Assembly (NCBI GenBank): GCA_001632425.1
Contig: KV425670.1
Span: forward strand, 1 to 59,523
Length of the DNA stretch: 59,523 nt
Source of the DNA: Neolentinus lepideus HHB14362 ss-1
Lineage: Eukaryota; Basidiomycota; Agaricomycetes; Gloeophyllales; Gloeophyllaceae
Reading direction: 5' to 3'
The position numbers were made by a program, and so were the translations under genes. Below, one piece after another: positions 640-35,840 of the stretch (within the stretch, counting starts at the first letter, position 1; each line of letters opens with the position of its first letter). The notes below the pieces were generated by a model. That model did no database searches and was not told where the DNA came from. It saw only the letters and a program-made list of their open reading frames with translations.

Positions 640-800
640 ACCAGGGCACTTCCAATGATCGTAAGGCGTCTTACGCTTAATGTGATGCCCGTCCTTCCAC
701 TTCGGAGGACATGTGCACAAGGAAAGCTTGTGCTTGTCTTCCTTGACGCAATGCCCATCAGTGCGACGTCCGGGAGTGTGAAGACCTGCTTACTGAGTAT
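640..800 (-). pseudogene. Broken small secreted cysteine-rich peptide gene (block A)
   Basis: The minus strand matches the plus-strand pseudogene at 5328-5500, including the promoter (TATAAAA complement at 849-855) and the leader region. The initiator that is ATG in the other copy is ATA here (798-800). A frame change after the Ala-Ser codons is needed to reach the cysteine part, which reads CTCPPKWKDG and later KCPG, the same C-x-C-P-P ... C-P layout as the intact peptides. It has therefore lost its start codon and its frame. What is seen: homology to 5328-5500 and the residual cysteine motif. What is inferred: that it was once a secreted peptide gene. Confidence 0.6.
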
Positions 801-1264
801 GGTAAGTTGGTAGATGTGACTCTTTAGTTATTTGATTTTTACGAGCTCTTTTATACTTGTATGTCACTCTGGGAGTGCCATGTAAGTGCAGATGACGTTC
901 CGCAAGTAATTTTAATACTAGGATCCTTGGTCCCGCTTTGTTTAGCTGAGGACTCCACGGTCCGAGTCGACCTAGCTCGCAGTGTTGGCTATTTTTTCTA
1001 TCATCGTACTGCTGTTTGATACTTGAGTGACTAGGTGTTTTTCAAACTCCGTAGATACAATTCATGGAATCAAATACACGGTTGTGCTGTGATCTCTTCC
1101 TTCCGCATACATACGTAAATGTCCCCCACTCCCTCCTTGGATGCTCTATCCAGGGTTTCTCTCAGTGACCCAGAAAAGCTGAAGTAGAACATCCTCCTGC
1201 CAAGGCAAACTAATAGCATCGTTGTTAGCCCTTTGCGCAGAAGTAACAAAGCAAGATCATACAA
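801..1264. other. Intergenic DNA inside block A
   Basis: This holds the duplicated 3' flank of the 1265-1459 gene (minus direction) and the promoter of the 640-800 pseudogene. Part of it (about 915-960) matches 6515-6565 and 10625-10670 in inverted form. No other gene is visible. Confidence 0.5.
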
Positions 1265-1459
1265 TCAAAGTGGGCAAGGACCGGGTCTACACGTCGACTC
1301 TGCGCGAGCTACGATAGGCACGGGGCTTCCTGCTCGAAGTGGCCCAGGCGGACAACTGCACCGTGGTAGCAGGGCTTCCGTCGTTGTCGGCGTAGGTGAC
1401 GCCGACGATAGACCCACCAATGCGATGAGAAGAAGCGTGACGACTCTGGTGAATGTCAT
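1265..1459 (-). CDS. Small secreted cysteine-rich peptide, type I (block A)
   Basis: A 64-residue precursor of unknown function. Residues 1-21 form a signal peptide (MTFTRVV, then a Leu/Ile/Val core, then GLSSAS). A SPTPTTTE linker follows, then RCSCPPGP, a spacer, and a C-terminal CRPGPCPL ending. That gives four cysteines as C-x-C and C-x3-C, with CP close to the stop. An in-frame ATG 13 codons upstream lies only about 20 bp from the TATA box, so I chose the downstream ATG, which sits about 54 bp from it as in block B. Paralogs in the window are at 6026-6217, 10137-10334, 19952-20146 and 21591-21773. I do not recognise the family. It is not a hydrophobin (too few cysteines) and not a CaaX pheromone (no terminal CaaX). 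Secretion is inferred from the leader. Confidence 0.75.
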   Translation of the reverse strand: MTFTRVVTLLLIALVGLSSASPTPTTTEALLPRCSCPPGPLRAGSPVPIVARAESTCRPGPCPL

Positions 1460-1512
1460 GATGATGACACAGAGGCTATTTGGGATTGTTTCATCCATTT
1501 CGCGCTCAGTTC

Positions 1513-1519
1513 TTTTATA
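1513..1519 (-). promoter_or_regulatory. TATA box of the 1265-1459 peptide gene
   Basis: The complement reads TATAAAA about 54 bp upstream of the chosen ATG. The same element lies at the same distance in block B (5972-5978), and as CATAAAA in block C (10084-10090). Confidence 0.6.
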
Positions 1520-1843
1520 CTCGCAGACTGCGTCCCAGATCTAGTCCCCGTGTTGGTGGCAATTCTCCGATGGAGATGGAATCCCGCAGATCAAAGGGGC
1601 TAAACCAACTGCGACGGCTAGCGCATTCTACAGTCCAGCACAGGGAGACTTAGGTACGCACGCAGTTGCTCGTTGCTGCTGTCAAACATCCTACTGAGTG
1701 CAGTTCGGTGACAATGCAGTCGAGGCCGGAACTCTCAAGTGTAATCGCCAATGGTGGTGTTCTTTTATTTCATCGCATGACATTCCTGCTGAATGCGTAG
1801 TTGGGTGAGTGCGAATCAAGACCGTCGCTCTCGAGTCCGCTTG

Positions 1844-2065
1844 TCAACTATAGTATTCGTCCCATGACGAACATGACTCAAACTCTGGACGCTGGCTAGG
1901 TGCAACGTGCTCTCCAGTTATCCCGCAGATATCGGCGCACATGCCGTGTTCGCAAGGACCGCATTCTATGCTGGGACCGGTCATCACTGTAGTCGTTGTA
2001 GTAGTAGTGGGCATCGCGAAAACATGGGTGCCAAGCGTTAGGAGGATGATTGTCCGGAAGTGCAT
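1844..2065 (-). CDS. Small secreted cysteine-rich peptide, type II (block A)
   Basis: A 73-residue precursor from MHFRTIILL; an ATG 11 codons further upstream (2098) is also in frame. The leader is hydrophobic and ends near VFAMP. A run of Thr follows, then IECGPCEHGMCADICG, with four cysteines as C-x2-C and C-x3-C, and a polar tail with one more cysteine (FESCSSWDEYYS). The block C counterpart (9492-9635) keeps the leader and MCADICGIT but has lost the first cysteine pair. Upstream, a CCAAT motif in GATCCAATAAGACC is shared by all three blocks; no TATA box is evident. Function is unknown; a secreted peptide or effector-like protein is inferred only from size, leader and cysteines. Confidence 0.65.
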   Translation of the reverse strand: MHFRTIILLTLGTHVFAMPTTTTTTTVMTGPSIECGPCEHGMCADICGITGEHVAPSQRPEFESCSSWDEYYS

Positions 2066-2220
2066 GACGGTAGTTTTCAGCGGTAACTTCGAGCGCATGT
2101 TGAAGCACTAGTCGCTGACCTGCACTTTCCTGTTTAGGTCTTATTGGATCGCATCATTGTCGCCACAAAAATGTAGCGCTGGTGACACGCAGTCCATCGA
2201 TTTGTTGCCAGATATCTCAG

Positions 2221-2510: not shown

Positions 2511-2566
2511 GCAATTAAAGCGCAGATTTAGTCTACAATGAATCGCAAGTTCATTCGGGCTCACTA

Positions 2567-2755
2567 TTATATTGAGGACGTGGCGGTGGCAGACGTGCTC
2601 AGACAATACATCGGGCACGTAGGTGGACTTGGACAGGGACAGTAATATCCAGGGCCTGATACGGTGGTCGGGCCAATGGTAGTTGTTGGAATAGGGCCGG
2701 CCAAGGCCACAATTGCGACGACGAGCGATCCGAGGAAGGGTTGGAACAGGAGCAT
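2567..2755 (-). CDS. Small secreted cysteine-rich peptide (PIPTTT type)
   Basis: A 62-residue precursor. The hydrophobic leader (MLLFQPFLGS then a Val/Ala/Leu core) ends near ALAGP. A PIPTTTIGPTT linker follows, then YYCPCPSPPTCPMYCLS, which gives C-x-C, x5, C-x3-C. The tail is rich in Ser, Thr and Ala. The leader, linker and two-pair layout match the other peptides here, although sequence identity is low. It lies just beyond block A and on the same strand as the block A genes. No clear TATA box is seen upstream. Function unknown. Confidence 0.65.
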   Translation of the reverse strand: MLLFQPFLGSLVVAIVALAGPIPTTTIGPTTVSGPGYYCPCPSPPTCPMYCLSTSATATSSI

Positions 2756-3381: not shown

Positions 3382-3585
3382 ATGTCTAGTCTTCTTCAAT
3401 TCGCCGAAACAATGAACCCGATTCCCGCTACACAAATCATCCTTCTGGCTTTCGCTGGGATTGCATTGGCTTCTCCCACTCCTCACTTCTCAGGCTACTA
3501 CAACCACCATTACATATAATGCGGTACACCCTGTCCACCGGGCTACATGTGTCCGGACTACTGTACCGTCGCTATTGCTGTTTGA
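3382..3585 (+). pseudogene. Small secreted cysteine-rich peptide gene with one in-frame stop
   Basis: From ATG at 3382 (or 3412) the frame gives a hydrophobic leader (QIILLAFAGIALAS), then PTPHFSGYYNHHYI, then TAA at 3517-3519. The same frame then continues without a gap as CGTPCPPGYMCPDYCTVAIAV and a TGA at 3583-3585. The part after the stop matches the intact gene at 4047-4202 (CAPCKPHEVCPDYCIV). So leader and cysteine domain are both preserved in one frame and are separated by a single nonsense codon. No GT lies between the leader and the TAA, so splicing out of the stop looks unlikely. It is either a young pseudogene or a case of readthrough; I favour pseudogene. Confidence 0.7.
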
Positions 3586-3980: not shown

Positions 3981-4046
3981 GCCACAATCTTTGCTGCGCA
4001 GGAGTCCACGATCAGTTTCCACTTCATCCGCCCTGCCTGAAGAACC

Positions 4047-4202
4047 ATGAAATTCATTCGCGCTGTACAATTCGCGATTCTCGCTTTAGCTAAGCTCGCG
4101 TCGGCTAGCCCTACGTCCACATACGCTTGTGCACCATGCAAGCCTCACGAAGTTTGCCCTGATTATTGCATTGTGACGACGCTCACACCGGTAAATGGAT
4201 AG
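4047..4202 (+). CDS. Small secreted cysteine-rich peptide
   Basis: A 51-residue precursor. The leader is MKFIRAVQFAILALAKLASA; a short SPTSTYA linker follows, then CAPCKPHEVCPDYCIV (C-x2-C, x6, C-x3-C) and a TTLTPVNG tail. If cleaved after ASA, the mature peptide would be about 31 residues. The nearest relative in the window is the nonsense-broken locus at 3382-3585, which shares the MCPDYC or VCPDYC core. A good TATA box lies 73 bp upstream. The single ATG and compact layout make the start certain if the gene is real. Function unknown. Confidence 0.75.
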   Translation: MKFIRAVQFAILALAKLASASPTSTYACAPCKPHEVCPDYCIVTTLTPVNG

Positions 4203-5217
4203 GTGAGACATGCTGTAAACTCGAGAATGATAATCGGCTGACTAGTCATACTGTGATCACTGATAGATGTTCGAAGTACAGATGTTCGCGGGAAGCACCC
4301 AGAGGATAGTAGGAGAGGGTTATTGGGTCGTGGAAACGAGAGTGCAGCAGGTACCGGATGGCCGCCTGCACAAACATGTCTCCATTAGAAAGTAAACGCG
4401 GGGCAATTCAGAACCGGGCACACTGTAGTCACAGTAACTATCCACGTGAGTGGATTCAGTGGAATAGATCACGGTGGCGGACGACGGCAGACCTGAATTA
4501 CTACTGCGAAGTCAGACTTGGGAGCTTAGGACGTGGGTTTGAGTATTGTCAAAGATATTGAGAGTCGTAAATCAAGCCTCATTTGCCCCTAGAATAATTA
4601 GCTGAAGGCGTCAACGGTTACGGCTTGTAGACCGAAAAGTTGGTCAAGAAATGGACAGACTCGAGTCGGTGCTCTCCTTGAATGCCCTTGAGAAACATCG
4701 CACACAGACCTGGTACGAACAGGAATCAATTCCGAAAACACGAAAAGCCGACGAGAGACAACAGAACCTTCAACTACCGATGAACATACCGCTAGGGAAA
4801 CCAATGATATTTTGGATAGTCAGCTGAGCCGACACCAAGCATGCCAAGCACGTCCACTGACGAGTGTGCACAAGACATTCATGGCTGCAGTCGTCCAATT
4901 TCACGAAGGCTTCTCCAGGCCATGACAGAATGGATACGCGAATCAATATTAGTCCGACTGTAGAGCGTAGAGCGGATGTGCTGGATGATTCAGCGAGGTT
5001 CATCGTCACCTGGCACCTGGTCATGGCCACCAAAACTTCAGTAGTTCCAATTGCCTAGGTGATTATGCGAATCGGCGTATGCGTCAGAAGGCTCGGTGTC
5101 CGCAACTTGAAGGAATGATGGTTGATAAGTGAATAGGCAGACACTCGGAGTGCCTGGCCCATACCAGCGCGGATTTAGTGCTGCAGGGGGTTTCGATTTC
5201 TGACAGTCAGACTATTA
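4203..5217. other. Intergenic stretch, no supportable gene
   Basis: Open frames of 60-90 codons occur on both strands but overlap each other and show no domain, leader or splice pattern I recognise. No repeat match to the flanking blocks was seen. Confidence 0.45.
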
Positions 5218-5500: not shown

Positions 5501-5971
5501 GTGTATGATTGGGTCTTACTCGGACTACATCAGACAGATGTACGACATCAAGACTGCGGAGTTATATTCTAGAGAAAAAAGAAAATTCAGCGTAACTATA
5601 CAGTAGTCCTGCCGTAGAGGCGATATGCGCACGATTTGTGATAGGAGCATCGTTGCAAGGAACAGGGATGTACCTTGGACGACAGTTGAAATGGGTGCTA
5701 ACGGGACCGGAGGGGCATGTTTCAAGGTATGTCCCTTGACCGCAGTTCCCCACCGCACCTAAAGAACTGAGAAATCTGGCAACAAATCAATGAACTGCGT
5801 ACTACCAGCGCCACATTTTTGTAATTGCAATGATACGATCCAATAAGACCTAAACAGAAAGTGTAGGTCAGTTAGTTTGGCCCTTTGATCTGCGGGATTC
5901 CACTTCCATCGGACAATTGCCACCAACACGGACGCGGACACGGGGAAGAGACCTGGGACGCAGTCTGTGAG

Positions 5972-5978
5972 TATAAAA
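5972..5978 (+). promoter_or_regulatory. TATA box of the 6026-6217 peptide gene
   Basis: TATAAAA, 54 bp upstream of the chosen ATG; same position as in block A. Confidence 0.65.
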
Positions 5979-6025
5979 GAGCTAAGAGCAAAATGAAGGA
6001 AGCAATCGCGAACCTCATCGTCATC

Positions 6026-6217
6026 ATGGCCTTCACAAGAGTCATCGCGCTTCTTCTCATCGCATGGGTGGGGCTATCGTCGGCGTCGCCTGCACGAACG
6101 ACCACGGAAGTCTGGCTACCACCGTGTACCTGTCCGCCTCTACATCGAACAGCCTCTCTCGTACCTATCGGAACCCGAGAAGAGTTGACGTGCATGCCCG
6201 TTGCTTGTCCATATTGA
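6026..6217 (+). CDS. Small secreted cysteine-rich peptide, type I (block B)
   Basis: A 63-residue precursor: leader MAFTRVIALLLIAWVGLSSA, linker SPARTTTEVW, then LPPCTCPPL, a spacer with VPIGTRE, and the ending CMPVACPY before TGA. The four cysteines (C-x-C ... C-x3-C) and the terminal CP-aromatic are conserved with 10137-10334. Aligned by eye to that paralog, roughly 13 codons differ by replacement and 8 silently, including silent TGT/TGC changes at two cysteines. An upstream in-frame ATG at 5993 is only about 20 bp from the TATA box and is probably upstream of the transcript start. Function unknown; secretion inferred. Confidence 0.75.
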   Translation: MAFTRVIALLLIAWVGLSSASPARTTTEVWLPPCTCPPLHRTASLVPIGTREELTCMPVACPY

Positions 6218-6960
6218 TGGTATGATCTTGCTTCGTTACCGCTGCACAAAGGGCTGATGACGATGCTATTAGTCTGCCTTGATAGAAGGATCTTCTACTT
6301 CCACTTTTCCGGGTCACGGGAAGGGAATCGGCAGGAGAGAGCGGAGGGCACTTCGATGCGTATCTGTGCAAAAGGAAGAGATCATAGCTCAACCGTGTAT
6401 CCGATTCTATGATTTGTATCTGCGATCTGCCGAGTCTGAGGAACACCTTTCGCTTCAGCGAAGTAGGCACTCAAATGTCAAATGGCAGCATGATGATGAA
6501 AAACGACCAACGTCGACTGGGACCGTGGAGTCCTCATCCCAACAAAGCGGGACTAAGGATCCTAATCAAGAGCTACATTCCCTAGGATGAACACGCACCA
6601 TATCATGCCCCCCTAACTCAGAAGCGAGTTCACCACTACGCCTCTCATCCTACTACCACGCAGCGAGAGTGCCACGCAACCACACCAACAACGGATCGCA
6701 GGGAAAATAAGAGCGTATCCAAAAATCAGAAACGGCGCGCGATATCGGAAACAAGCCCCCCGACTTTCTGTATACATCATGATATTCGACGCCTCGGTCG
6801 GTTGCGGATCCCAGGGTGACCGGATGCAAAGCTGGTGGGGTTGTATCACCTCACAAGGTAGAGATATCGAATATCCGACCGCCGCTCCTTCCACAATTAT
6901 ATCGGGATGCATGCCGTGTAGGTTCCAACTAGGTATGTCGCTGTATTGCGTATACAACTA

Positions 6961-7254: not shown

Positions 7255-9052
7255 TTACCTAAGGCCAGTAAACACGCCATGGAAGCCGAGAGGAAAATGG
7301 GTGCCCATATATGCTCTCGCAACTTCTGTCAAGTCCTTAGCATCAAGCATGACAAGCATGCTCTTCTGCGTCTTCCCGTCGAGAACAACGCTCAGTAATA
7401 TCCCATCGTCTTCCTGCGTCTCTGGAGATGACCCAGGCCTCGGCACGAATATGGGTTCTCCTGGCGCTGTCCCAGGTATCGCCCATATCTTCGGTTCGGA
7501 CTCGGGTGCCGACATGTCGAGCTTCACGATTCTGTCCGCGAAACCGACAGACCTCGTGAAGTCTTCTTTATTTATACCATACCTAAACCAGCAATCAGGG
7601 CTGTCAGCGTATGTTTAGTGCACTCAAGTAATGCGACGAGCGTACGTATAGCGATATGGTTTATGATACAAAGCCGGATGCACTGTGCAAAGCTCGATGC
7701 TCGAGCTAGGCGGAAGTGTATACTCGACCTTCGCTTGGCGCGTGGACTCTACTGAAGAGTGCTCTCTGATATCCTTCAAGACGAATCGTCTTGCTCTCGC
7801 CAAAGGAGTCGGTGTTCCGCTCTTCAGAATGTCGACATAGAGAAGTTGTAAGATGCTGTGATCGTCGTAGACCGCAATGTCGATGACAATGTCATCGCCA
7901 GAGTCGTAAGCGTTGATGTAGTGGAAAGCGAAGAAAGGCTGAGTCTAAGATCTTCTGGGTCAGTTTTAACGTCCAAAGTAGATGAAAACGAACTCTACCT
8001 CGAATTTAGCAACTATCCCACCTGCGTGCCTGTCGATCACATAGAAAGTGGATGATTGTTTCGGCTTCCATGCTCCAATAGAAGCTGCGACGCTACGATT
8101 GAGCCGAATGTTTGCCCCGTTCCTGCAACACCCACATCAGCGCCTACATCAACGGTACCATCCCGTGCCGAATTCACAACATATAAACTTACATAGTGAA
8201 GTCCCCCTGCCATACACTCAATACGACATATTTCTCTGTCATTGTGAGGGCGTGCAGGTACGCAGCAGGCGCGTCCTTGATCTCCGCCAATATATCAACC
8301 TCATAGTCCTTACCACTCTCTGCCCGTGACAGACGGCGAATCCGGAAGACCTTATACACAGCGGTGCGGCCAAACTTCAGAGTGTAGTTATAGAACTCCC
8401 CGGTCTCCTTGTCTTGGCAAGAGTGCGCTGCACTCAATGCGCCGTCCAGACGAGGGTCAAGATAGTTGTACGTAGTGTAATGAAGAGGTCGCAGCGTATC
8501 CGGGTCGAGAATTTGGAGGGCGTCATTGTCGCTCTTCGCGACGATATAACGAGGGCTAGCAGATGAAATGCCCGATGGGATAGCATGGTGAGAAGTGAAC
8601 CCAGGCATGTCTGGTGTCAGAGTAACAGATACGTTGCGGTCGTCCGGACCACACTGTTCGGCAGGTGGACGATCGACTTCGAGTGGCTTAAACGCGGTGA
8701 AGAATTCAGAGAAGATCGCCTCGCACGGGTCCTGTTTGCCAAACGTAGTGCCAACAGCCTTGCCTGCTTTCTCGTAGCGAGCCTGCACACCCAGCGCGGT
8801 CGAGTGGTTGCGATACTTGACCTCGCCACTAGGGGTAATTTCGAAGCAGTGAGTCATGCCGAGTCCGTCGAACCAGTGCTTTAGGTTGATGCTACCGGAT
8901 GGTGCATTATTCGAAGGTATGTTCCAAGTCCCTGGTCCGGTCCTGTACAATCTACCAGTTAACCATGAAGGAATGGTCCCCGTAACCTGCAGTTTCACAG
9001 GTTCTCGCTGTTCGACGGCGTTCTCGTAGCCAATAGCGATTCCTTGAGCCAT
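7255..9052 (-). CDS. Carotenoid oxygenase (carotenoid cleavage dioxygenase / RPE65 family)
   Basis: Non-haem iron oxygenase that splits carotenoid or related polyene double bonds. The first exon (from MAQGIAIGYENA at 9052) carries the family start PSWLTGRLYRTGPGTW and HWFDGLGMTHCF. Candidate iron-binding histidines are seen in LSAAHSCQDKETGEFYNY, AAYLHALTMTEKYVVL, FFAFHYINAYDSGDD and the C-terminal FPLGFHGVFTGLR. The C-terminal exon also has EPIFVPRPGSS and LVMLDAKDLTEVARA. Introns I can place: after GDFTM (GTAAGT), after AKFE (GTAGAG) and inside YRYTYGINKEDF (GTACGC). The family histidines and length suggest an active enzyme. Substrate cannot be told from sequence. It stands between peptide blocks B and C, but nothing links it to them functionally. 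Confidence 0.93.
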
Positions 9053-9491
9053 CCTAGTGGGTAAGAATATACGATGAGCGACAGAACGAACACAGGCGAA
9101 GGCAATATATAGGGGCATTACACTTACTCTGATGTGCGGATTGTGATAGTTGATTCAGTTATCTGGTGATGGCTTTCTCGTCCGAAGCAAACGGGTTCGC
9201 TTCACGACTTGGATGACATTGCCTGTTCTGCTATATAATTCAAAAATACTGCTATAACGCCCAAGTTGCAGCTTATTCTGCGTGTGCGTGCGACCAACCG
9301 TTGTCATGTGACCGGAGGACATGTTTCAACTTATGTCCCTTGACCGCAGTTCCCTACCCGCACCTAAAGAACTGAGAAATACGGCAATAAATCGATGAAC
9401 TGCGTGTTACCAGCCCTGCATTTTGTGATGAAAATGATGCGATCCAATAAGACCTAAACAGAGAGTGCAGGTAAGTGACTAGTGCTTCACC

Positions 9492-9635
9492 ATGCGCTGG
9501 AAGTCACCGCTGAAAACTACCGTCACGCACTTCCGGAAAATTATCCTCCTAACGCTTACTGCCTTCGCAATACCCACTACTGCCACAATGACTGAACGTG
9601 ACATGTGCGCCGATATCTGCGGGATAACTAGATGA
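9492..9635 (+). CDS. Shortened small secreted peptide, type II (block C)
   Basis: A 47-residue frame: MRWKSPLKTTVTHF, then a hydrophobic stretch (IILLTLTAFA), IPTTATMTERD and MCADICGITR. Compared with the block A gene at 1844-2065 it has lost the Thr run plus the first cysteine pair (the GPSIECGPCEHG part) and gained an early stop after GITR. Only one cysteine pair (C-x3-C) remains. It may be a degenerating copy or a reduced functional form. The upstream CCAAT context is shared with block A. Confidence 0.45.
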   Translation: MRWKSPLKTTVTHFRKIILLTLTAFAIPTTATMTERDMCADICGITR

Positions 9636-10136: not shown

Positions 10137-10334
10137 ATGGCCTTCACCAGAATCATCACACTTCTACTCATCGCATTGGTGGGGCTATCGTCGGCGTCGC
10201 CTACACCAACAACGACCACGCAAGTCCCGCTACCACCGTGCACGTGTCCGCCTTTGCCAGGACGAACAGCCTCCATCGTACCTATCGGAACTCGAGCAGA
10301 GCCGACGTGTAGGCCCCATGCTTGTCCATATTGA
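10137..10334 (+). CDS. Small secreted cysteine-rich peptide, type I (block C)
   Basis: A 65-residue precursor: leader MAFTRIITLLLIALVGLSSA, linker SPTPTTTTQVP, LPPCTCPPLPGR, VPIGTRAE, and the ending CRPHACPY. Four cysteines in the family layout. It is the sister of 6026-6217. An in-frame ATG at 10104 is only about 20 bp from the TATA-like element, so the ATG at 10137 is preferred. Function unknown. The Thr/Pro linker could carry O-glycans, which is inference. Confidence 0.78.
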   Translation: MAFTRIITLLLIALVGLSSASPTPTTTTQVPLPPCTCPPLPGRTASIVPIGTRAEPTCRPHACPY

Positions 10335-11000
10335 TGGTAATGATGTTGCTTTGTTACTGCTGCACAAAGGGCTGACGACGACGCTATTAGTCTGCCTTGA
10401 TAGGAGGATGTTGTACTTCCCCTTTTCTGGGTCACGGGAAGAGAATCTGAGGAGGGAGCGGAGGACACTTGCGTATTTGTGCGGAAGGAAGAGATCGTAG
10501 CTCAACCGTGTATCTGACTCCATGAATTGTATCTGAGGAGTCTGAAAAACACCTAGTCACTCAAGTGTCAAACGGCAGCACGATGATGGAAAAATGACCA
10601 ACACTAGTGCGAGTTTGGTCGACTCGGTCCGTGGAGTCCTCATCCCAACAAAGCAGACCTAGGGATCTACGCCTCCTAGGAGGAACACGCACCATATCAC
10701 GCCTCCTAACTCAGAAACGAGTTCACCGCTACACCTCCGGATGACATTCCAACCACAGCGAGAGTGCCGAGCCACGACATCGCAGGAAAAGTCAGAGCAC
10801 ATCCCAACACCAGAAACGGCACGCGATACCGGAAACAAGCCCCCGGCTTTTTGTATGTTCGACGCCTTGGCAGCGTGACCTGGTGCAAGGTTGGCAGATG
10901 GATCCAATAATCTTCGGGAGGATATGGTACATATGGGTAAGGGTTGTATGATCTCGCAAGGTAGGAAGATCCGATCCTTCGTTCCATGCATGTGGACACG

Positions 11001-19951: not shown

Positions 19952-20146
19952 ATGACCGCTAGACGCGTATCCGTATTCATGCTTCTCCTCGTAACACTGG
20001 CGGGGCTGTCGTCCTCCTCGCCGACGCCGACAACGACAGCGACCTTGCCGCCGTGCAGCTGTCCGCCGCTGTACGCTCGCTCACTGTCCCTGTCTGTTAT
20101 TCCTCGTGCGGAGGAGACGTGCACACCTCACGCTTGCCCGTTGTAA
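19952..20146 (+). CDS. Small secreted cysteine-rich peptide, type I
   Basis: A 64-residue precursor. The leader (MTARRVSVFMLLLVTLAGLS) ends in SSS; the linker is SPTPTTTAT, then LPPCSCPPLYAR, a spacer with IPRAEE, and the ending CTPHACPL. All four cysteines and the terminal CP-L match the block genes, 9-19 kb away, although its flanking DNA does not match those blocks. This copy therefore moved or diverged separately. The ATG is the only sensible start. Function unknown. Confidence 0.78.
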   Translation: MTARRVSVFMLLLVTLAGLSSSSPTPTTTATLPPCSCPPLYARSLSLSVIPRAEETCTPHACPL

Positions 20147-20680: not shown

Positions 20681-20848
20681 TCAGCGTCTCCACTTGCGTG
20701 TTCTCGTACTGTCGTACAGAACATGGTGCTGTTGCATCAGCTGATGGCAGGACGTCAGAACATCAGGTACTGCTGCCCGTACTGGCAACACCGACCAGAG
20801 GTCGACGAGAGCGACAATAAGGAGGGTGATCACTCGGTTGAGTCCCAT
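20681..20848 (-). pseudogene. Degenerate small secreted peptide gene
   Basis: The leader MGLNRVITLLIVALVDLW clearly matches the 21591-21773 gene (MALGQVITILIVALVGLS), and the flanking DNA upstream of both is also similar (a TATAAG element, GAACGCAGTCC). After the leader the frame departs from the family: the SPTP linker is lost and only one cysteine follows (TSCHQLM). Probably frameshifted. Confidence 0.55.
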
Positions 20849-21590
20849 GAGCATGACGAGGCGCCAAGGGCCTCTCCTGCTCCTTCCACTTTTCCCCTGC
20901 ACTCTCTTATACTCTCATGCTCATTACAATCACGACGGATACGGTAACTCAGGTATGGCATCGCTTGCTTAGTTGCGTGAAGCTCACCACTGAACGCAGT
21001 CCAGTGAGTAATGTGGTCGCAACTATTGTTGTCGAGCGCAATCGGCAAGCGATACTTTCCCAGTTCTTTCTACATCACTACTCGCGACTACCATCGAGTC
21101 TTTATCACTACTCGATGGCGAACATCTAACTTCGTCGCTGGATGCTGGCTTTCCCCTCAGCCGTAGCTGCAGCGAACAACAGTGCGATATTCACGACACA
21201 TTCTGGTGTCTGCTGCGACTTCGGCGACCTTTCAAATTGTCAGGGAGACGGCTGTTCATTTGACTGGCTTTCGTAAGTCTGGACCGAATGTTGAAGATAT
21301 GCCCCTCATTATTATTCAGAATATATAAGCTTCAGATGCAATACAATTGCCGAAACACGGTGAGTTCCGCCTTATCCGGTTCGGTTGCAGTCTCGTTGAA
21401 CCATCTACATTAGATAAGTAGAAGTGAGTATTCAATATTTCGGCTGGTCCTTAAATGCCTAATGTCAACTCTGTTCATGTAGTCCCAACGTCGAGAAATA
21501 ACCCCACTTTCATGTCGTACGACAGGCTTATGAACTGGTTGATCGCGTCGTCAGTCCTACCGCACAGAGGACTGTAGGAAGACCGTACCG

Positions 21591-21773
21591 TCAAGGGCAG
21601 TTAATTGGCCTGCACGTCGGCGTTGCTCGAGCTACCAATGCAGTTCCTTGCGCTAGATCGGATATGCAGCATGGTGGTAGCTGCGGTTCAGGCATTGCTG
21701 TTGGTGTCGGCGACGCAGATGAGAGGCCCACCAGAGCGACGATAAGGATAGTGATTACTTGACCGAGTGCCAT
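21591..21773 (-). CDS. Small secreted cysteine-rich peptide, type I variant
   Basis: A 60-residue precursor: leader MALGQVITILIVALVGLSSA, linker SPTPTAMPEPQ, LPPCCISDLAQG, VARATP and the ending CRPINCP. One residue is missing between the first two cysteines, giving CC instead of C-x-C, and the last residue after CP is lost. A TATAAG element (complement at 21831-21836) lies about 60 bp upstream, at the same distance as in the related broken copy at 20681-20848. Function unknown. Confidence 0.7.
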   Translation of the reverse strand: MALGQVITILIVALVGLSSASPTPTAMPEPQLPPCCISDLAQGTALVARATPTCRPINCP

Positions 21774-22736: not shown

Positions 22737-24474
22737 TCAGACTATGCAAACGCACCTCAAAGGCGATTCCTGCGACAACGAACGCATGCAAGTAGCTGAC
22801 ACCCTGCACATCGCTAAATAACGCGCGTTGTAATCATCTATTCTGAAGGTAATTAGGTGGGTGTACTCACGAGAAGGAATATAGGGAGATAGTGTCCACA
22901 TTCCTCGCACCGTCCGCCGCCCGAGCGATAGCCCCATCTTGTATGCGCACAATCGTGATTGTAACGCAGATTATTCACAGCCTGCGCAATGCGTTCGCGG
23001 TATAGAGGCACTTGGGCACGCTGAGCGGGGCGGCCAAACTCTGCGCGGACCTGCTGCTGGGCTCGATCGAGAAGCCGGTCTTCGTCCCACTGAGGACAAT
23101 CACAAGTCTTCCAGAGTGCGCCACATCTGTAGCAGAAGTCCGTCCTACATGCACATGTCCTGAAAAAATGTATCTCAGTCAACATCATAGCATGCATGAA
23201 CGCTCGCAACCAGTGACGTGACACACATGTGATAGCAGCCATGAGTGAGCTCCGTAAATCGCCGGCACGCAGGACATCTCTGATATCCTTCTCGCCTTGC
23301 TAGTTCCAGCAACGTCTCATCACCAAAGTTTGGATGACACTCTCCATACAGATGCTCGAGACCTTTGCAGTCGGGACAGACTCGTGCCGCGCACTTGTAG
23401 CACGTGACTATCCCCCTGGACTTGTCCGCTGCACCAAGGAATGCAGAACACGTCGCCTTCGGGCAGTACAGCCTGTTCGACGTGTTGTGCTCTAACTCCT
23501 TGGTGCGGTATTCCATAATCTGCTGCTGTGAGAGGTGTGGGCGAGCGAGATCGAGAGGGATATGCTGCTTGCAGCATCGAGCAGGGATGAGGCTCTCATC
23601 CTTGGTCGCTTGCAGGAAGAGCTCGATGAGGCAGTCAAAGTCGTAGTGGCTAATCAATTAATCGAGCCTATCATCCGATGCTCAAGGACGATGGCTAGGA
23701 TACGTACTGTCCACAGGGGACCTTGACTGCCTCATCTGTGCTCACAGCAGTCATACAAATAACGCACTCGAGCTTGATTACGGTCTTGGTGGTTGTTCTA
23801 CGGAAATCATGCGGTATCAGAATGATGCTCTGCTGATGCGATTATATAATTTGTGCGCACCTGGAGGAAAAAGCGGCACTCTGGACGAATATAGATGCGC
23901 CGAGTTCTTGCTTTGCTGGCGGGGCTGCGGTCACTAAGGTTGACTGAGACGATCCCGCTGAAGAGTGAGAGCTTGTTCCCGACGGGCCAGCCGAAGAATG
24001 AGAGCTCATTCCCGACGGTCCAGCCGAAGAACAAGAGCTTGTTCCCGACGGTTCAGCCGAAGAATTAGGATCCGCTGGAGGCATCTCACGACCCTCTGAA
24101 AGCGCGATGGCTATTTGCCGGTCACGACGAGCGACATATTCCTCTCGCGCGAATGTCTCCAGAATACCTGCATCCTCATTCATAGCAGAGTCAATGCTAC
24201 GAGCGATCTTCTGATCGGCCAGATACCGCTGCAACGCCATCAGCTCCTCCCTGTAAAGACTATACGCAGTCGTCGCATCGTCCCCTGTGTCTTCCCGACA
24301 CTTGCCTTTGGATTCACGCTCAAGGGCCTCCAGATCTTCCAGCTGGAGGGAGATAAGGAGGTTGGACAAATCGTCAACGTCCTCGTCCTCGTCCTCGTCT
24401 CCCTCGACTGCGTCTCCCTCGTCATCGAAGACGGGATCCACAACGACAGTAGAAACCCTTGAGCTAGAAGCCAT
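22737..24474 (-). CDS. RBR-type (RING-IBR-RING) E3 ubiquitin ligase
   Basis: Transfers ubiquitin from an E2 through a RING/HECT hybrid mechanism. From MASSSRVSTVVVD: an acidic N-terminus, a Ser/Gly/Pro repeat tract (about residues 137-174), then RING1 (CVICMTAV ... VPCGHHYDFDC ... CC). The IBR part follows (RLYCPKATCSAFL ... CYKCAARVCPDCK). RING2 reads RCPACRRFTELTHGCYHMTC ... CRTDFCYRCGALW. The cysteine in HGCYHMTC is the expected catalytic thioester residue. Introns follow AAFSSR (GTGCGC), PCGH (GTACGT), inside HM (GTGTGT, joined to TCAC) and after PIFLL (GTGAGT), with a short last exon ESPLRCVCIV. Fungal genomes often carry several such proteins. The substrate is unknown. Confidence 0.93.
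23954..24066 (-). repeat. 33-bp coding minisatellite in the RBR gene
   Basis: About 3.5 copies of a 33-bp unit encode an 11-residue repeat of the form SSAGPSGTSSH. The repeat keeps frame and lies in the low-complexity linker before RING1. Confidence 0.8.
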
Positions 24475-24839: not shown

Positions 24840-25017
24840 CACTTCGGGATCCGTTAATTGCACTCTTTTGGACCCCGCAAAAGGTTGATCACACTTCGGG
24901 AGTTGCACTCTTTTAGGCCTAGCAAAAGGTTGATCAAAATGCATCCCTAAATATTATCTTTTCGATATCCCTTTTGATCAACCTTTTGCTAGGCCTAAAA
25001 GAGTGCAACCCGAAGTG
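24840..25017. repeat. Near-perfect long palindrome with an extra direct copy
   Basis: Arms 24892-24939 and 24972-25017 are inverted copies, identical except for a 2-base AG insertion in the left arm (CACTTCGGG ... TTGCACTCTTTTAGGCC ... AAAAGGTTGATCAAAA), with a 32-base AT-rich loop. Just left, 24840-24891 is a diverged direct copy of the same unit (CACTTCGGG, TTGCACTCTTTT, CAAAAGGTTGATCA). This looks like a foldback or MITE-like element or a recombination product; no target duplication was identified. Confidence 0.85.
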
Positions 25018-26266: not shown

Positions 26267-29200
26267 CAGTTATGGGCGACGGCTATTGGTACCGTGCGTG
26301 TCATCTGTACATACGTCAGTGGGGGCCAGGCCCCAAAGGCCGCTCTAGCACGGAATGTCCTCGGCACATGACGTCTGTTGTGCTACGTCCGTACGGATCA
26401 CTGGGCGAACCCCGACGGCTATGACACATCTCGGTTCGAGCACTCATGTCGTTGAAGTATTATAGAAGAGGAAACATGTAACACACCGAGCAAGATGTCG
26501 ATGTACACGTCGGCTATTGGATGAATCTGCGCTTGACGGAAGGTGCTGACTGACGAGTTCCTAGATATAATGTGATCATATGTGAACACCGCTGGAAAGA
26601 CGTGTATAACAGAGACGCACATGTTCACAAAGAAGGTATCGCCGGCCCGATAATCGTTGAATTCGGTGGCATCCTATTAGCCGCAAAACACGATACATGA
26701 CTGCAAGAGGTTCATGGAGGCCATGACGTACTTGGATTGCAGACGGAGAAATAAATATTGTGCTAACTAGTGGTCCTCGGGCAGGTTAATCTTCGAGATG
26801 ACCCAGACGTAAGCACTTCGACCCAATCATGTGGCAGCCGAATTGAACGTCATGCATGGAGTCCAAATGTATGCGTTTGGGTTTGCTGATACTGTTCCAT
26901 GTACCATTTGGAGTATGAGGCAACCCTGATGCATTGATGACCGACACAATCCATGCACTGCCGACGTAAGAATAGAGCCTGATATATGAACGTGATAGAA
27001 TTGGGTGGAGCAGTACTAAACGTCTACTTCTGTCATCATTCCAAGGCTATAAGGTATAAGTTGTGCAACTAGATTAAAATCAAGTACAGACGGAGTGGGT
27101 GCTTACTTGAGCTTCTCCAATGTCATACGTCTACGTAGAGTAGATCAAACCTAACACCGTCAATCCCCAGGATAGACTCAGTCAAATGGAAGTACAGCTT
27201 TAGGGATATTCCTAGGCCTATTGTGTCGTGTCATATGCCAATTGCCCAAGAGAGTCACGATTCCTTCGATGCGATCAACATTCTTCCGGATCCCGTCAAC
27301 TACGTCCTATGTGAGGCGAGATGCTGGCTTGACTACAGTCTGCAGATGCAAGCTGGAGAACAACAGTGTTGAACTTGAAGCCCACAGATACGGTCAAGAG
27401 CTTGAACTTGTCGAGATGGTCAAGAGAAACCGCCTGCGGACAGCTGCGGCCGGTCCGGTACGTTCCGGAATGGAAACTTCGAGCTGACCGAGTACTTGGG
27501 TGCGCTTGTGCATATAGTTTGCCATCAGGCAGATGTTCAGGAGACAAGGTCCCTTTCATTACTATTCCATGGAATCCTTCAAGGACTTCTGAATCGCATG
27601 CAACCGCCGTGCAGTAGCGGAACGAACAACGCAGGTCAGTCTGACTAAAATGACATCTTCGGGAGACCTGTAATACTTTGATTATTTTATAGGACAATTT
27701 TCCGACAACGCCCAAATGACCCGAAGAAAATGTAGCGACTGTCCACAAATCCAACGAAATATCGACGGTTTTTACGGCCTGTGCCTTCCGTAGACTCCAG
27801 GATTATTGGTGACTGGGTTAGCCGCCACTTGCAGACCATTTGCTACGCATCACATACCTCATCACGACGGGCATGCGCAAACAAGGTATTATCGAACTGG
27901 GTTTGTATCTATGGCCGCGATTGTCACAGGCGCAGCATATATGGTTGTTGGACAAGGACAGCACACCAATTTCGCAGGTGCCGGAGAGGCCCATGTATAG
28001 CCAGCGATCGCAAGGAGGACGTGAATGACACGTTTTGCAAGCATTCTCTCACTTCAAGTGGAGCTCAACTGACAGTACTTGATAGTATTATAGGGGCGAC
28101 TTGGTATGCATTACAGGAACTCGAGACAGTTTGTGAATGAGGGGATAGTCCCAACTTCAGCGGAACCTACATGAGAACGGCTTTGTTCCTGGTTCCCGTC
28201 GACCACCTACTAACAACGTATCTTTTAGCACCTACCATTGTGAGGGACTGTCAGGAAAAAGACACCGCGTGTATTCCATATTCATTTAGCCTGAACAAGT
28301 GGTCACTACTGCCGCTCCGAACCGCCGAACTCAACTTGGGAATGCGATGTAAACAGGTGAACCATTTTCACTGAAATATTTCTCAAGGTATAGAGCTGAC
28401 CATTTTGTATCCGTTTGGATAAAATTTCGATACAAAGACATTTTGCCCAACTCAGACTCAGCCTATACAGCGCTTGGGTTCTCGGACCGCATTACGTGCT
28501 ATAGATACCGTATGCTGATTCAAACACGCCGGACAGTGAGTTCTTTTAATGGCACTGGTCGGGCATCATTGATGAAGAACTTGTCCATCCATTATTGTTG
28601 AACCCCGGAGATGATGTTAAGACGACGTGGGAACTTCCGTTGTCTCCTCCGTTACTGACCGCCTGTGAATCATGAACATGATGATTTAATTACATCATAT
28701 AGCTTCAACGACATTGACAGGTGCCAGTGAGTCCGCAGTGATTGCTATGTTGAGCGCCACAGGCACAATCAGTTCCGTTCGTCTTAGCCTCCCGACTTCA
28801 TCACCGCCAGAAATGCACGATATTCAGGCCAGTTCGACCGGTTGAGAGCACGCACGTGCTCTGCCGTGGAAAGTCACGGAGGTGCCATAAATCCGCTGGG
28901 CCGGCCAAGACCTCCTGTGGCGCTTGAATCGGGAGACTCCTGATCGGAGTTATTTCGTGGGCGACCTCGTTCATCGACTTGGTTATTCGCTCCAGCTAAA
29001 ATCGTTATACCGGTACGTGAGCTCCTGTTTTGATCCACCGATGCCTACAAAAAAAGTTCCTGGCGGCAGCAATGTCGTACGTATGTTCTCAAGACGAAGA
29101 TGTGAGGCCTTCTGTCTCGGTCAAACCGATCTTCCGAATATGCCAGGCCGATTCAACAATAATCATAGCTCCTCTTTGGGAAGTGTCTGTTCGATCTTTG

Positions 29201-29542
29201 AACCTCGATTACCTGACTGAATCGCCGGCCTAACCAGAAGACGGTCCTTGCATTCCCGCGGTTTGGATACGTGAACACTCGAGCGTACACACATTGGCAT
29301 TAATGTCTCTCGCAAATAATACATGTATGTGCCACATCCCGTCTCGCCTCCTCCCACTCTGACGCTCGAACAAATCGTCTCGAACACCCGTTCAGTTTCC
29401 TAAACAATCACGTCGAGCCACTGTCGAACGTCCGTGTCGAAGTTTCAGGCCCTTCGGGAGCGAAACTCGATCAAAATCTGTAAGGCGAATCAGGAATCCT
29501 GCTATTATAATTAGGATTAAGTATTGCTTACATCGAAAAGTT
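26267..29542. other. Long gene-poor stretch
   Basis: Several frames of 60-150 codons occur on both strands (for example 27296-27754 minus, 27781-28140 plus, 28924-29220 plus) but none has a domain, signal peptide or consistent splice structure that I recognise. The stretch is likely decayed accessory DNA. No transposon ends were identified. Confidence 0.45.
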
Positions 29543-29710
29543 TTAGCTTGAAGGGCACGGTCCACAATCTCTGCATACTGGACCAACACCATACTTGATG
29601 GGAGGGCATGGGCAACACTCCAACTCGGTTTGAGGCGAGGCAGTCGCACTGACTGAGGCTACTGCAGCAATCGCGACGAGCAAAGCTCCTACGAGGCGAC
29701 TGATGAACAT
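29543..29710 (-). CDS. Small secreted cysteine-rich peptide with six cysteines
   Basis: A 55-residue precursor: leader MFISRLVGALLVAIAAVASV, then SATASPQTELE, then CCPCPPIKYGVGPVCRDCGPCPSS and TAA at 29543-29545. It has six cysteines (CC-x-C ... C-x2-C-x2-C) and ends PCPSS. The ASP motif after the leader and the CPCPP core place it with the other peptides. A TATATAA box (complement at 29773-29779) lies about 65 bp upstream. Function unknown. Confidence 0.72.
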   Translation of the reverse strand: MFISRLVGALLVAIAAVASVSATASPQTELECCPCPPIKYGVGPVCRDCGPCPSS

Positions 29711-33913: not shown

Positions 33914-33914
33914 G

Positions 33915-33921
33915 TATAAAA
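33915..33921 (+). promoter_or_regulatory. TATA box of the 33986-34225 peptide gene
   Basis: TATAAAA, 71 bp upstream of the ATG. Confidence 0.6.
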
Positions 33922-33985
33922 CGGGTGCCACAACATGACCGTTCTACCAAGAATCAAAGACTTTACCCAAGCACCAACACCAGAT

Positions 33986-34225
33986 ATGCGCACCACTACA
34001 TTCCTTGCTTCCATGCTCGTCGCTTTCGCGAGCCTGGCTATGGCCGCTCCTCAGACTACCGCTACCTGCGATTGTTCTAATCCGCCTGCTCTTCGCCCAC
34101 GGGACATAATTTGCCACTGCCCATACGAGCCTGTTACCACCTCCACCACAGCAACATGCGACTGTTCGTCTACCGCGTCGCTGCGTGCCCGCCAACAGTG
34201 CAACTGCCCCATTCAAACTCTGTAA
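33986..34225 (+). CDS. Small secreted peptide with a doubled cysteine module
   Basis: A 79-residue precursor. Leader MRTTTFLASMLVAFASLAMA, then APQTT and two tandem modules. Module 1 is ATCDCSNPPALRPRDIICHC; module 2 is ATCDCSSTASLRARQQCNC. Each module is C-x-C, an 11-12 residue spacer with Leu-Arg, then C-x-C-P. A Thr-rich joint (EPVTTSTT) separates them. There are eight cysteines, but not in hydrophobin spacing (no adjacent CC). The repeat shows that the unit of this family is a pair of short cysteine pairs. The in-frame ATG at 33935 is too near the TATA box, so 33986 is preferred. Function unknown. Confidence 0.78.
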   Translation: MRTTTFLASMLVAFASLAMAAPQTTATCDCSNPPALRPRDIICHCPYEPVTTSTTATCDCSSTASLRARQQCNCPIQTL

Positions 34226-34679
34226 TGTGAGTACTGATCGACCAAATGAGCTTCTCGAATCTGACTCCATCGTTGTCGAAGGGCACTGCACATCGGGACA
34301 CGTCATAAATGCGCCCCACGTCAAGCTGAAGTCTAAAATATTTCATTAATCAGGATATATGAAGAGAACTGGGAGAATCGGCAGTGTACTTACGGGCATG
34401 TTTGTAATGAATGCAACTTTCTAATCGGGATGGACGTCCTAGACATAACTAAATCTGCACAACGCCTCAGGCGCAAATCCACCGCCTAAGCCAATCAACA
34501 TGACCATGCGCCCATGTGGAGGCGCGTGAGTGGTCAGACAGTATCCACTGACCACGGGACGTGGAGAAGGCTAAATTTGTGAATGACATGACTTGGGTGT
34601 AAATGGCCGGCGTGCCCTCACGAGTTTCTAGACCTGTTAACCGTACAATGGAAAGTTGATGATCGCCTAGACGCCCGCC
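34226..34679. other. Intergenic between peptide loci
   Basis: No gene seen. Confidence 0.4.
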
Positions 34680-34889
34680 ATGGTCAGCTTCCGCCTAGAG
34701 ACTGTAGTATTCTTGCCGTCCGTCCTCGTCACGACATCAGCTACGGTCACTTCTCCGTGTTGTCCTTGCACTCGACCTACTGCTGCAATGCAGAAACGAT
34801 ATCCGCGACAATATTGCAACACGTCAAAATTGCCCGTCGTAGAATCGTGCGGGACGTTCGTGCGGTGCATTCCCACAAAAATAGCCTGA
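34680..34889 (+). CDS. Possible small secreted cysteine-rich peptide
   Basis: A 69-residue frame from MVSFRLETVVFLPSVL, with a moderately hydrophobic start, TTSATVTSP, then CCPCTRPT and later QYCNTSK, ESCGTF and VRCIPT. CCPC resembles the CCPCPP core at 29543-29710, but the leader is weak and no TATA box is seen. It could be a diverged member or chance. An overlapping minus-strand frame of 91 codons exists and has no recognisable feature. Confidence 0.35.
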   Translation: MVSFRLETVVFLPSVLVTTSATVTSPCCPCTRPTAAMQKRYPRQYCNTSKLPVVESCGTFVRCIPTKIA

Positions 34890-35673
34890 AACACGAACAG
34901 GCTGATGGGTATTTCAAGCGCGAGGAGCGGGAGAACTAGCATAGACAGAGAGCCAATATTTGCCAGATACGCCTAAGAAATCTCCGACCTTCTCTCAGTA
35001 TGCAATGATTTACCGATATGCTGAAATTATGCATGCTTGCAAGATGAATGCCGGTACTACTTACCTGACGATTAGATTACTTACTCGGGGGTTTTAGTGG
35101 GTATCAATCTACCTGAGCATGGTCGCCGACAACGAGAGCCTTCATAGTTGAGACGGTTTTTTGGAGCCCCACACGGCTGCAACATATTGTTGCGGCGTGT
35201 GTAATGGCATTTCCTCCGGAGGACTTATAACGACTATTTGGTTTATCTTTTGTACCAACACTTTGAACGGATACCTGAGGGTTAGCGCAGTCTAACTGCC
35301 CAGGTGTTATATCGTTCCTCAAAAAAACAAAAAAAATAATGAACGCCGATATTGGAGAGAATATCAAGGAACGGCTTTTGAGTCCCGGGAACAGGAATGT
35401 GATATGACAAATCATTATCTGCGCAGAGACCAGTAAATTGTCAGGAACAGATACGATAATATGGTCGTACCTCAAGTATATGGTGTATGCTCGATTATAC
35501 GTTTGACGACGTACCCGTCTATGCAACCCAACGTAATGTCGTCTCCAACACAACCACAACTGAGTTGACAGGGCGCCCATGTCTTTCTCATGGCATTCAG
35601 CCATACACAGCACTGATTAACCTTCACCAATAAATATGAGCCAGAGAGGACTTCTCGGTTCACCGGGCTTGAC
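34890..35673. other. Intergenic, no supportable gene
   Basis: A minus-strand frame of 169 codons (35104-35613) has no domain I can name; a weak ankyrin-like look near its end is not enough to call. Confidence 0.4.
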
Positions 35674-35840
35674 ATGATCACCCTTCGCTCTTTGCACTCG
35701 CCCTCTTAATATTCGCGGGACTGTCTCAATTTCTACCACAAGCCACGACCACATTATCTTGCTCTCCATGGTCTCAGCCAACCAGAAATTTCAGTCGCAC
35801 TGCAGAAGCAACCTGCAAGATATGTGATTGTCCATTCTAG
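35674..35840 (+). pseudogene. Small secreted cysteine-rich peptide gene with a disrupted start
   Basis: A frame ending at TAG 35838-35840 reads PSLFALALLIFAGLSQFLPQ, then ATTTLSCSPW and ATCKICDCPF. That is a hydrophobic leader, a Thr linker and a C-terminal C-x2-C-x-C-P, as in the family. The frame has no ATG: the only nearby ATG (35674) is one base out of phase. A single-base change in the leader would explain this; an upstream coding exon is the alternative. Confidence 0.5.

What the first reader, a model, noticed from the sequence alone, without database searches (positions are those of the whole stretch)
640..35840. A dispersed family of tiny secreted double-cysteine-pair peptides, 12 intact or near-intact and 5 broken loci
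Seen: at 17 places between 0.6 and 35.9 kb a short frame begins with a hydrophobic leader ending near Ala-Ser-Pro, goes on through a Thr/Pro linker, and ends in two short cysteine pairs (C-x(1,2)-C ... C-x(1,3)-C), often with CP at the very C-terminus. Known: this does not match hydrophobins (eight cysteines in fixed spacing), CaaX pheromones or cerato-platanins. Inference: it is a lineage-specific secreted peptide family, possibly effectors, antimicrobial or metal-binding peptides, expanding in an accessory region. This is the best candidate for something undescribed in the window.
Basis: partly seen in the sequence, partly recalled or inferred. Interest (0 to 1): 0.88.

Follow-up and report, generated by a model that had tools for sequence, protein, structure and literature searches.

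The report
Hidden family of tiny secreted peptides
A wood-rotting mushroom carries a clustered, largely unannotated family of very small, probably secreted cysteine peptides whose genes share an unusual layout, a predicted intron directly behind the stop codon, which may help to find such easily missed genes.

Summary
A leader-plus-four-cysteine scan finds 8 ORFs in 1-36 kb, against mean 0.02 (maximum 1) in 60 shuffles, and none in the rest of the window. Database names point to Neolentinus lepideus; two relatives occur in Heliocybe sulcata. Five more open members lie on contig C8, a broken one on C70.

A TATA-like box upstream, one coding exon, and a predicted 48-66-nt intron starting 0-13 nt behind the stop. 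Both features: 12 of 22 loci tested, 0 of 672 background ORFs. A scan for the layout alone over 183 kb returned 12 ORFs, all family members, 11 of them already seen when the rule was made. Diverged pairs have dN/dS 0.16-0.46; recent duplicates 0.31-0.72. No Pfam, NCBIfam or convincing PDB relative.

Function is unproven: near-neutral peptides with even cysteine counts; several share R-A-E before the last cysteines, suggesting processing. No expression data.

The parts
1265..1459 (-). A1, intact A-type peptide gene (64 aa), ends RAESTCRPGPCPL
   Evidence: TATA-like box at -60; predicted intron 1210-1262(-) (placed from offset and length)
6026..6217 (+). A2, intact A-type peptide gene (63 aa), ends REELTCMPVACPY
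   Evidence: TATA-like box at -54; predicted intron 6220-6272
10137..10334 (+). A3, intact A-type peptide gene (65 aa), ends RAEPTCRPHACPY
   Evidence: CATAAAA at -54; predicted intron 10337-10390
19952..20146 (+). A4, intact A-type peptide gene (64 aa), ends RAEETCTPHACPL
   Evidence: dN/dS 0.19 against A3; TATA-like box at -48; predicted intron 20149-20214
21591..21773 (-). A5, intact A-type peptide gene (60 aa), ends RATPTCRPINCP
   Evidence: TATA-like box at -63; predicted intron 21535-21588(-)
4047..4202 (+). B3, intact B-type peptide gene (51 aa), C-x2-C-x5-C-P-D-Y-C
   Evidence: TATA-like box at -73; predicted intron 4203-4266
2567..2755 (-). B1, intact B-type peptide gene (62 aa)
   Evidence: donor GTGAGC 2 nt behind the stop; no TATA match and intron model not met; not recovered by the scan
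29543..29710 (-). C1, intact C-type peptide gene (55 aa), CCPCPP...CRDCGPC
   Evidence: dN/dS 0.29 and 0.21 against two C8 genes; TATA-like box at -68; predicted intron 29478-29531(-)
33986..34225 (+). D1, intact peptide gene with an internal duplication (79 aa, 8 cysteines)
   Evidence: TATA-like box at -71; donor GTGAGT 1 nt behind the stop, intron model not met
1844..2065 (-). B4, open frame, doubtful member (5 cysteines)
   Evidence: no TATA, donor or intron match
34680..34889 (+). D2, open frame, doubtful member
   Evidence: no TATA, donor or intron match
3412..3585 (+). B2, broken B-type copy (one stop); predicted intron still matches, no TATA match
27862..28044 (-). C5, broken copy (one stop); donor still matches, no TATA match
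20681..20848 (-). A5b, decayed A-type copy (not given to the layout tests)
35674..35840 (+). Q, frameshifted A-like copy; no layout match
9492..9635 (+). B4b, shortened copy of B4 in the duplicated segment
5334..5438 (+). E1, leader with the cysteine part out of frame; no layout match
690..830 (-). second copy of E1, broken (not given to the layout tests)

Best explanation
A real gene family of Neolentinus lepideus and a near relative that makes very small, probably secreted peptides (precursors of 51-79 aa). Where the layout is complete, a gene has a TATA-like box upstream of the ATG (13 of 22 loci; 11 at 48-73 nt, two at 99 nt), one coding exon, and a predicted 3'-UTR intron directly behind the stop codon. 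After removal of a leader of about 20 residues a Pro/Thr-rich chain of about 30-45 residues (59 in D1) with 4, 6 or 8 cysteines remains, most likely held by disulfides. In the A group the two cysteine pairs are separated by a variable spacer, and a conserved Arg-Ala-Glu before the last pair (3 of 5 intact A genes; REE and RAT in the others) suggests cleavage that frees a peptide of about 12 residues with a C-x4-C-P ring. The post-stop intron probably serves mRNA accumulation without interrupting the tiny frame, and lies too close to the stop to be expected to trigger decay (distance rule recalled). Most likely role: extracellular peptides used against or between microbes in wood, kept under birth-and-death evolution. 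Shown by computation: family, layout, coding constraint in diverged pairs. Inferred: transcription, secretion, splicing, disulfides, cleavage, role. My odds: real genes 0.93; secreted disulfide peptides 0.85; cleavage in the A group 0.4; antagonism or defence as the role 0.35.
For: Shuffle control and interior controls. Layout: both features at 12 of 22 loci against 0 of 672 background ORFs; a layout-only scan of 183 kb returned 12 ORFs, all family members. The C8:615598 gene was found after the rule was noted and has both features. Constraint: dN/dS 0.19 (A3-A4), 0.16 (A4-A5), 0.21 (C1-C3), 0.29 (C1-C2); excess of third-position changes at P < 0.05 in 10 of 14 pairs tested. Heliocybe sulcata relatives: P0003, 84% to C8:621270; P0005, 69% to C8:615598. 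In the A group the spacer is 27% identical against 70% and 67% for the two cysteine blocks. Even cysteine counts in 15 of 15 sequences listed. Removing introns lowers mRNA of most tested genes in the basidiomycete Cryptococcus neoformans: PMC3744415 (abstract and passages).
Against: No transcript, peptide or splice evidence could be obtained. The layout rules were set after reading the flanks, and the TATA range and donor set were widened; under the strict donor the C8:615598 gene fails (GTGCGT), though it fits the looser GTRNGN noted. By my count, 6 of 21 loci had both features there. 11 of the 12 ORFs had been seen before. Loci are not independent (A1-A3 and C2-C3 are duplicates). Ten of 22 loci lack one or both features, among them two intact ORFs counted as firm (2567, 33986). 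Close pairs (A1-A3 0.72, A1-A2 0.52, A2-A3 0.43, A4 with the C70 copy 0.69) and A2-A5 (0.46) show weak or no clear constraint; 5 of 6 B pairs could not be estimated. In PMC3744415 the one 3'-UTR intron in the passages had a negative effect. Single-Arg sites are not the usual dibasic Kex2 site. Near-zero charge argues against a classical cationic antimicrobial. The doubtful B4 has five cysteines. AlphaFold2 gave only the leader helix (mean pLDDT 61.6 and 57.5).
Confidence: 0.6

Rival explanations
1. Secreted signalling peptides: A-group precursors release a small cyclic peptide sensed by the fungus itself, comparable in layout to ascomycete alpha-type pheromone precursors but with one copy per precursor.
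For: Leader, variable middle, R-A-E and a 12-residue end with two cysteines in A1, A3, A4 and the broken C70 copy; R-A-E also stands before the last cysteines of the C8:619121 gene. PMC6339444 reports alpha-pheromone-like features in some basidiomycete secreted proteins (passages).
Against: No KR or RR site in the mature part of 15 of 15 sequences and no tandem repeats except the duplication in D1. A2 and A5 have REE and RAT. The B group and most C genes lack the site. Rapid turnover is unusual for a core signal.
Confidence: 0.22
2. Cell-wall or surface peptides that tune hyphal surface properties.
For: Pro/Thr-rich, near-neutral chains in a multigene family fit such a role; surface-active small secreted cysteine-rich proteins are known (PMC8596622, search listing and start of abstract only).
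Against: The hydrophobin pattern is absent in 15 of 15 sequences; surface activity was not testable.
Confidence: 0.18
3. Thiolate metal-binding peptides: the closely spaced cysteines of the C group bind copper or zinc outside the cell.
For: Six closely spaced cysteines in C1-C4, C6 and P0003.
Against: Extracellular thiols are usually oxidised (general knowledge); A and B genes have only four cysteines; no match to a metal-binding family reaching a cut-off.
Confidence: 0.1
4. Chance or decayed non-genes: leader-like ORFs riding on duplicated DNA.
For: Seven of 18 window loci are broken; A1-A3 lie in blocks duplicated at about 73-79% identity, and these young pairs show little constraint.
Against: Shuffles, layout and diverged-pair dN/dS and relatives in another genus.
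Confidence: 0.05

Closest known systems
Heliocybe sulcata OE88DRAFT_1657220 and OE88DRAFT_1657226; Neolentinus lepideus NEOLEDRAFT_920195 and NEOLEDRAFT_1129826 (all 'hypothetical protein')
   Same: Relatives by profile search. The two Neolentinus entries come from a contig of 632,387 bases, the length of C8; 920195 equals the C8:619121 peptide letter for letter
   Different: They belong to the C and B groups; for the A group the search returned only two proteins of the window itself. 1129826 can only be reproduced with a 63-nt gap lacking GT-AG ends
Fungal small secreted cysteine-rich proteins (PMC4759460, passages)
   Same: Short, leader-bearing, above 5% cysteine, limited to related genera
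   Different: Far smaller than the 300-aa limit used there; a shared intron behind the stop was not mentioned in the passages I saw
KEX2-processed repeat proteins and alpha-type pheromone precursors (PMC6339444, passages)
   Same: Leader, middle part, short cysteine peptide at the end in the A group
   Different: No KR sites, no tandem repeats, single Arg only
Cylindracin / PRI3 (PMC11532979, abstract and passages)
   Same: Small secreted cysteine protein of a mushroom; about half of one recombinant form was cut after an Arg ahead of its cysteine part
   Different: 95 aa, eight cysteines, basic cysteine domain; sequence relation not tested
Vasopressin/oxytocin-type ring peptides (recalled)
   Same: C-x4-C-P ring shape near the end
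   Different: No evidence of kinship; a resemblance of shape only

Membership tests
Small secreted cysteine-rich protein (broad kind) | 300 aa or less and 3-5% cysteine or more | tested here: met
   51-79 aa with 4-8 cysteines beyond residue 20 in 15 of 15 sequences; limits from PMC4759460
Small secreted cysteine-rich protein (broad kind) | N-terminal signal peptide | tested here: inconclusive
   Own hydropathy and cleavage-motif rule; no SignalP-type predictor available
Hydrophobin | eight cysteines with two CC pairs in fixed order | tested here: not met
   Recalled pattern absent in 15 of 15; no Pfam match reaching a cut-off
CaaX lipopeptide pheromone | C-terminal CaaX box | tested here: not met
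   Recalled pattern absent in 15 of 15
CBM1 (label a database gives P0003) | CBM1 cysteine pattern or Pfam match | tested here: not met
   Recalled pattern absent in 15 of 15; P0003 has no Pfam match up to E 10
KEX2-processed repeat protein | internal repeats separated by KR or similar dibasic sites | tested here: not met
   No KR or RR beyond residue 20 in 15 of 15; only RK in C3 and KK in C4
Cerato-platanin | Pfam domain match | tested here: not met
   19 sequences gave only weak sub-threshold matches, none to cerato-platanin
The family described here | single exon, TATA-like box upstream, predicted intron within 20 nt behind the stop | tested here: met
   Both at 12 of 22 loci (open and broken), 0 of 672 background ORFs; three decayed relatives were not given to the test; splicing itself not testable

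The most novel reading that the evidence does not exclude
The A group is a mushroom peptide-hormone-like system: precursors cut after a single Arg (R|A-E) release a cyclic C-x4-C-P peptide, from a fast-evolving gene cluster whose genes carry a post-stop intron, a compact expression format for micro-peptides that standard annotation misses genome-wide.
Probability: 0.12. Interest if true: 0.82.

Novelty: new variant of a known kind. Interest (0 to 1): 0.55.

Why it matters
Very small secreted peptides are easily missed by gene prediction. Of 13 members whose sequences stood in the three profile queries, 4 came back from the protein database (A1 and A5 of this window, the C8:619121 peptide, and the C8:614687 gene as a variant model), which suggests that most are unannotated. 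A layout rule that returned 12 family genes and nothing else in 183 kb (11 were known when it was made) could help to find more, and the post-stop intron poses a testable question about how basidiomycetes express single-exon micro-genes.

Tried and rejected
Chance ORFs: rejected by shuffles and interior controls. Transposon cargo: the 1.6-kb stretch around A3 has matches only within this contig by DNA search (which scores only the best candidates), so a dispersed repeat is unlikely. Hydrophobin, CaaX pheromone, CBM1: patterns absent. Known structures: 2 and 4 weak, unconvincing PDB matches, best E 0.051. Structure prediction: two low-confidence AlphaFold2 models, not used for fold searches. 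The leader-bearing ORF at 5872-6018(-), opposite the promoter of A2, has only two cysteines and was not counted.

Literature: no row listed described this family. Rows seen: 20 of 85, 20 of 38,479, 6 of 6 for Heliocybe sulcata, 12 of 12 for Neolentinus lepideus with transcriptom, 12 of 14, none found, 12 of 257, 12 of 9,623. These are listings of an open-access library, so absence from print is not shown.

Layout test 1: strict donor at 12 of 21 loci and 23 of 236 background ORFs; TATA at 10 of 21 and 10 of 236; both at 6 of 21 (my count) and 0 of 236. Test 2 used widened rules. Left out of both tests: the decayed copies at 20681-20848 and about 690-830, and C8:607587. dN/dS was computed for 27 pairs; 14 of them were given to the third-position test.
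Full report
What the window is. The window is the whole of contig C119 (59,523 bases) of a 33.8-Mb genome in 168 contigs. Two database proteins from a contig of 632,387 bases, the length of C8 in this genome, bear the names NEOLEDRAFT_920195 and NEOLEDRAFT_1129826 of Neolentinus lepideus HHB14362 ss-1, and the first equals the C8:619121 peptide. So the genome is very probably that fungus (Gloeophyllales).

The observation. Six-frame scripts, tblastn and reading of the flanks give 18 loci between about 0.69 and 35.84 kb: 9 firm intact ORFs, 2 doubtful open ones, 7 broken. A scan for a hydrophobic leader, a cleavage-like motif and four cysteines finds 8 ORFs in the first 36 kb; 60 dinucleotide shuffles give mean 0.02 and maximum 1; the rest of the window gives 0. 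The scan was written with the family in view and misses the firm member at 2567-2755. In 14 other stretches (123.8 kb) it finds 5, all in two neighbouring stretches of C8, and 0 in four 10-kb interior controls.

Groups. A (1265, 6026, 10137, 19952, 21591): LPPC-x-CPP (LPRC in A1; altered in A5), variable spacer, then R-A-E-x-T-C-x4-C-P in A1, A3 and A4 (REE in A2, RAT in A5). B (2567, 4047, broken 3412, C8:614687): C-x1-3-C-x5-C-P-x-x-C. C (29543, broken 27862, C8:619121, 621270, 623803, 615598): CC-x0-1-C ... C-x2-C-x1-2-C in the five open genes. D1 (33986) is an internal duplication. Sequences and places. C70 has one copy with a stop. C8:607587 holds a diverged relative of the 615598 gene.

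Reading the flanks (idea noted) showed TATA-like boxes upstream of the ATG and donor-like GTRNGN just behind the stop. Test 1: strict donor in the first 26 nt at 12 of 21 loci against 23 of 236 background ORFs; TATA-like box at -90 to -35 at 10 of 21 against 10 of 236; both in 0 of 236 and, by my count, 6 of 21. Test 2, with a wider donor set and TATA range and a full intron model (donor, branch-like CTNAY, YAG, 46-75 nt): donor at 17 of 22, intron at 13 of 22, TATA at 13 of 22, both at 12 of 22; of 672 background ORFs 92, 18, 30 and 0. Predicted introns are 48-66 nt long and begin 0-13 nt behind the stop; 11 of the 13 TATA-like boxes lie 48-73 nt before the ATG, two (C2, C3) at 99 nt. The rules were drawn up after seeing the flanks, were widened between the tests, and the loci are partly duplicates, so the P values printed are not to be taken literally. 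Three decayed relatives (20681-20848, about 690-830, C8:607587) were not given to the tests. Two checks are less exposed. The C8:615598 gene was found after the rule was noted; it has a TATA-like box at -60 and fits the noted donor GTRNGN and the intron model, though not the strict donor of test 1. And a scan for the layout alone, blind to the peptide, over the window and the 14 stretches (183 kb, ORFs of 25-130 aa) returned 12 ORFs, all 12 family members; 11 of these had been seen when the rule was made, so its weight lies in the absence of any other ORF.

Selection. Nei-Gojobori estimates (27 pairs). Pairs of intact genes with dS above 1: A3-A4 0.19, A4-A5 0.16, A2-A4 0.23, A1-A4 0.29, A1-A5 0.32, A3-A5 0.34, A2-A5 0.46, C1-C3 0.21, C1-C4 0.28, C1-C2 0.29. 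Young pairs: C2-C3 0.31, A2-A3 0.43, A1-A2 0.52, A4 with the broken C70 copy 0.69, A1-A3 0.72. Five of 6 B pairs, C2-C4, C3-C4 and A5 with the C70 copy could not be estimated; broken 3412 with 4047 gives 0.23. Excess of third-position changes: P < 0.05 in 10 of the 14 pairs tested (best 0.0013, A3-A4), not in A1-A3 (0.38), A2-A3 (0.2), C2-C3 (0.15) or A4 with the C70 copy (0.18); pairs share members. So the older members evolved as proteins; the recent duplicates are undecided. In the A group mean identity is 65% (leader), 45% (linker), 70% (first cysteine block), 27% (spacer), 67% (last block).

Relatives. Profile searches of about 5.8 billion proteins: group A, 2 proteins at E <= 1, both of this window; group C, 3 at E <= 10, two from Heliocybe sulcata and one from N. 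lepideus; group B, 1 at E <= 10, N. lepideus. The search needs shared five-residue words, so distant relatives can be missed. A group A query of the genome found the five copies, the C70 copy and a weak link to C8. Pfam and NCBIfam: no match reaching a cut-off among the 19 and 6 sequences given. PDB: nothing convincing.

Where the genes sit. The first 36 kb hold the family. Stop-to-stop frames of 100 aa or more cover 13% of 1-6 kb, 45-83% of the other 6-kb blocks and 60-83% of the four interior controls, so only the first part is clearly poor in long frames. Blocks of 0.1-1 kb occur in up to three copies, one inverted, at 73-87% identity, and the stretch 9300-10900 matches only within this contig. 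They carry A1, A2, A3, B4, B4b and the E1 copies: local duplication followed by decay.

How it may work. The leader, even cysteine counts in 15 of 15 sequences listed (the doubtful 1844-2065 frame has five) and lack of known domains point to secreted disulfide peptides. Net charge of -2 to +2 argues against membrane-active cationic peptides. R-A-E stands before the last cysteines in A1, A3, A4, the C70 copy and the C8:619121 gene. A cut after that Arg is plausible but unproven; about half of one recombinant cylindracin form was cut after an Arg ahead of its cysteine domain (PMC11532979, passages), whereas the Kex2 sites in PMC6339444 are KR (passages). Introns raise mRNA levels of most tested genes of Cryptococcus neoformans, though the 3'-UTR intron in the passages seen had a negative effect (PMC3744415, abstract and passages). 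I infer that a post-stop intron gives a tiny single-exon gene the intron it needs, close enough to the stop to escape decay (the distance rule is recalled).

Limits. No transcripts, no SignalP-type predictor, no whole-genome scan, no Heliocybe DNA. AlphaFold2 gave only the leader helix with any confidence. The role in nature is a guess; I rank microbial antagonism or defence first at about 0.35.

Noticed in passing
C8:614687-614842 (L024:5184-5342): The public model NEOLEDRAFT_1129826 can only be reproduced with a 63-nt gap lacking GT-AG ends; by hand count on the sequence a GT...CAG stretch of the same length lies 12-14 nt further on, just behind the stop.
   Followed up: partly
8189-9118: Exon of a carotenoid-oxygenase-like (RPE65) gene on the minus strand between the peptide genes.
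   Followed up: no
41441-46318: Transglutaminase-like and Rad4 beta-hairpin domains (41441-43393) and a GCD14 tRNA-methyltransferase match (45506-46318): conserved genes beyond the peptide region.
   Followed up: no
24902-25009: Fold-back repeat: two 50-nt arms, 90% complementary, 8 nt apart, possibly a small foldback element.
   Followed up: no
23948-24065: 33-nt tandem repeat, 3.6 copies, inside a 210-aa open frame on the minus strand.
   Followed up: no
1-317: The first 317 bases match C4:382104-382421 at 99.7-100%: a recent duplicate or an assembly break at a repeat.
   Followed up: partly
P0003 record: A database label calls the Heliocybe relative 'CBM1 domain-containing'; neither the recalled CBM1 pattern nor Pfam supports it.
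   Followed up: yes
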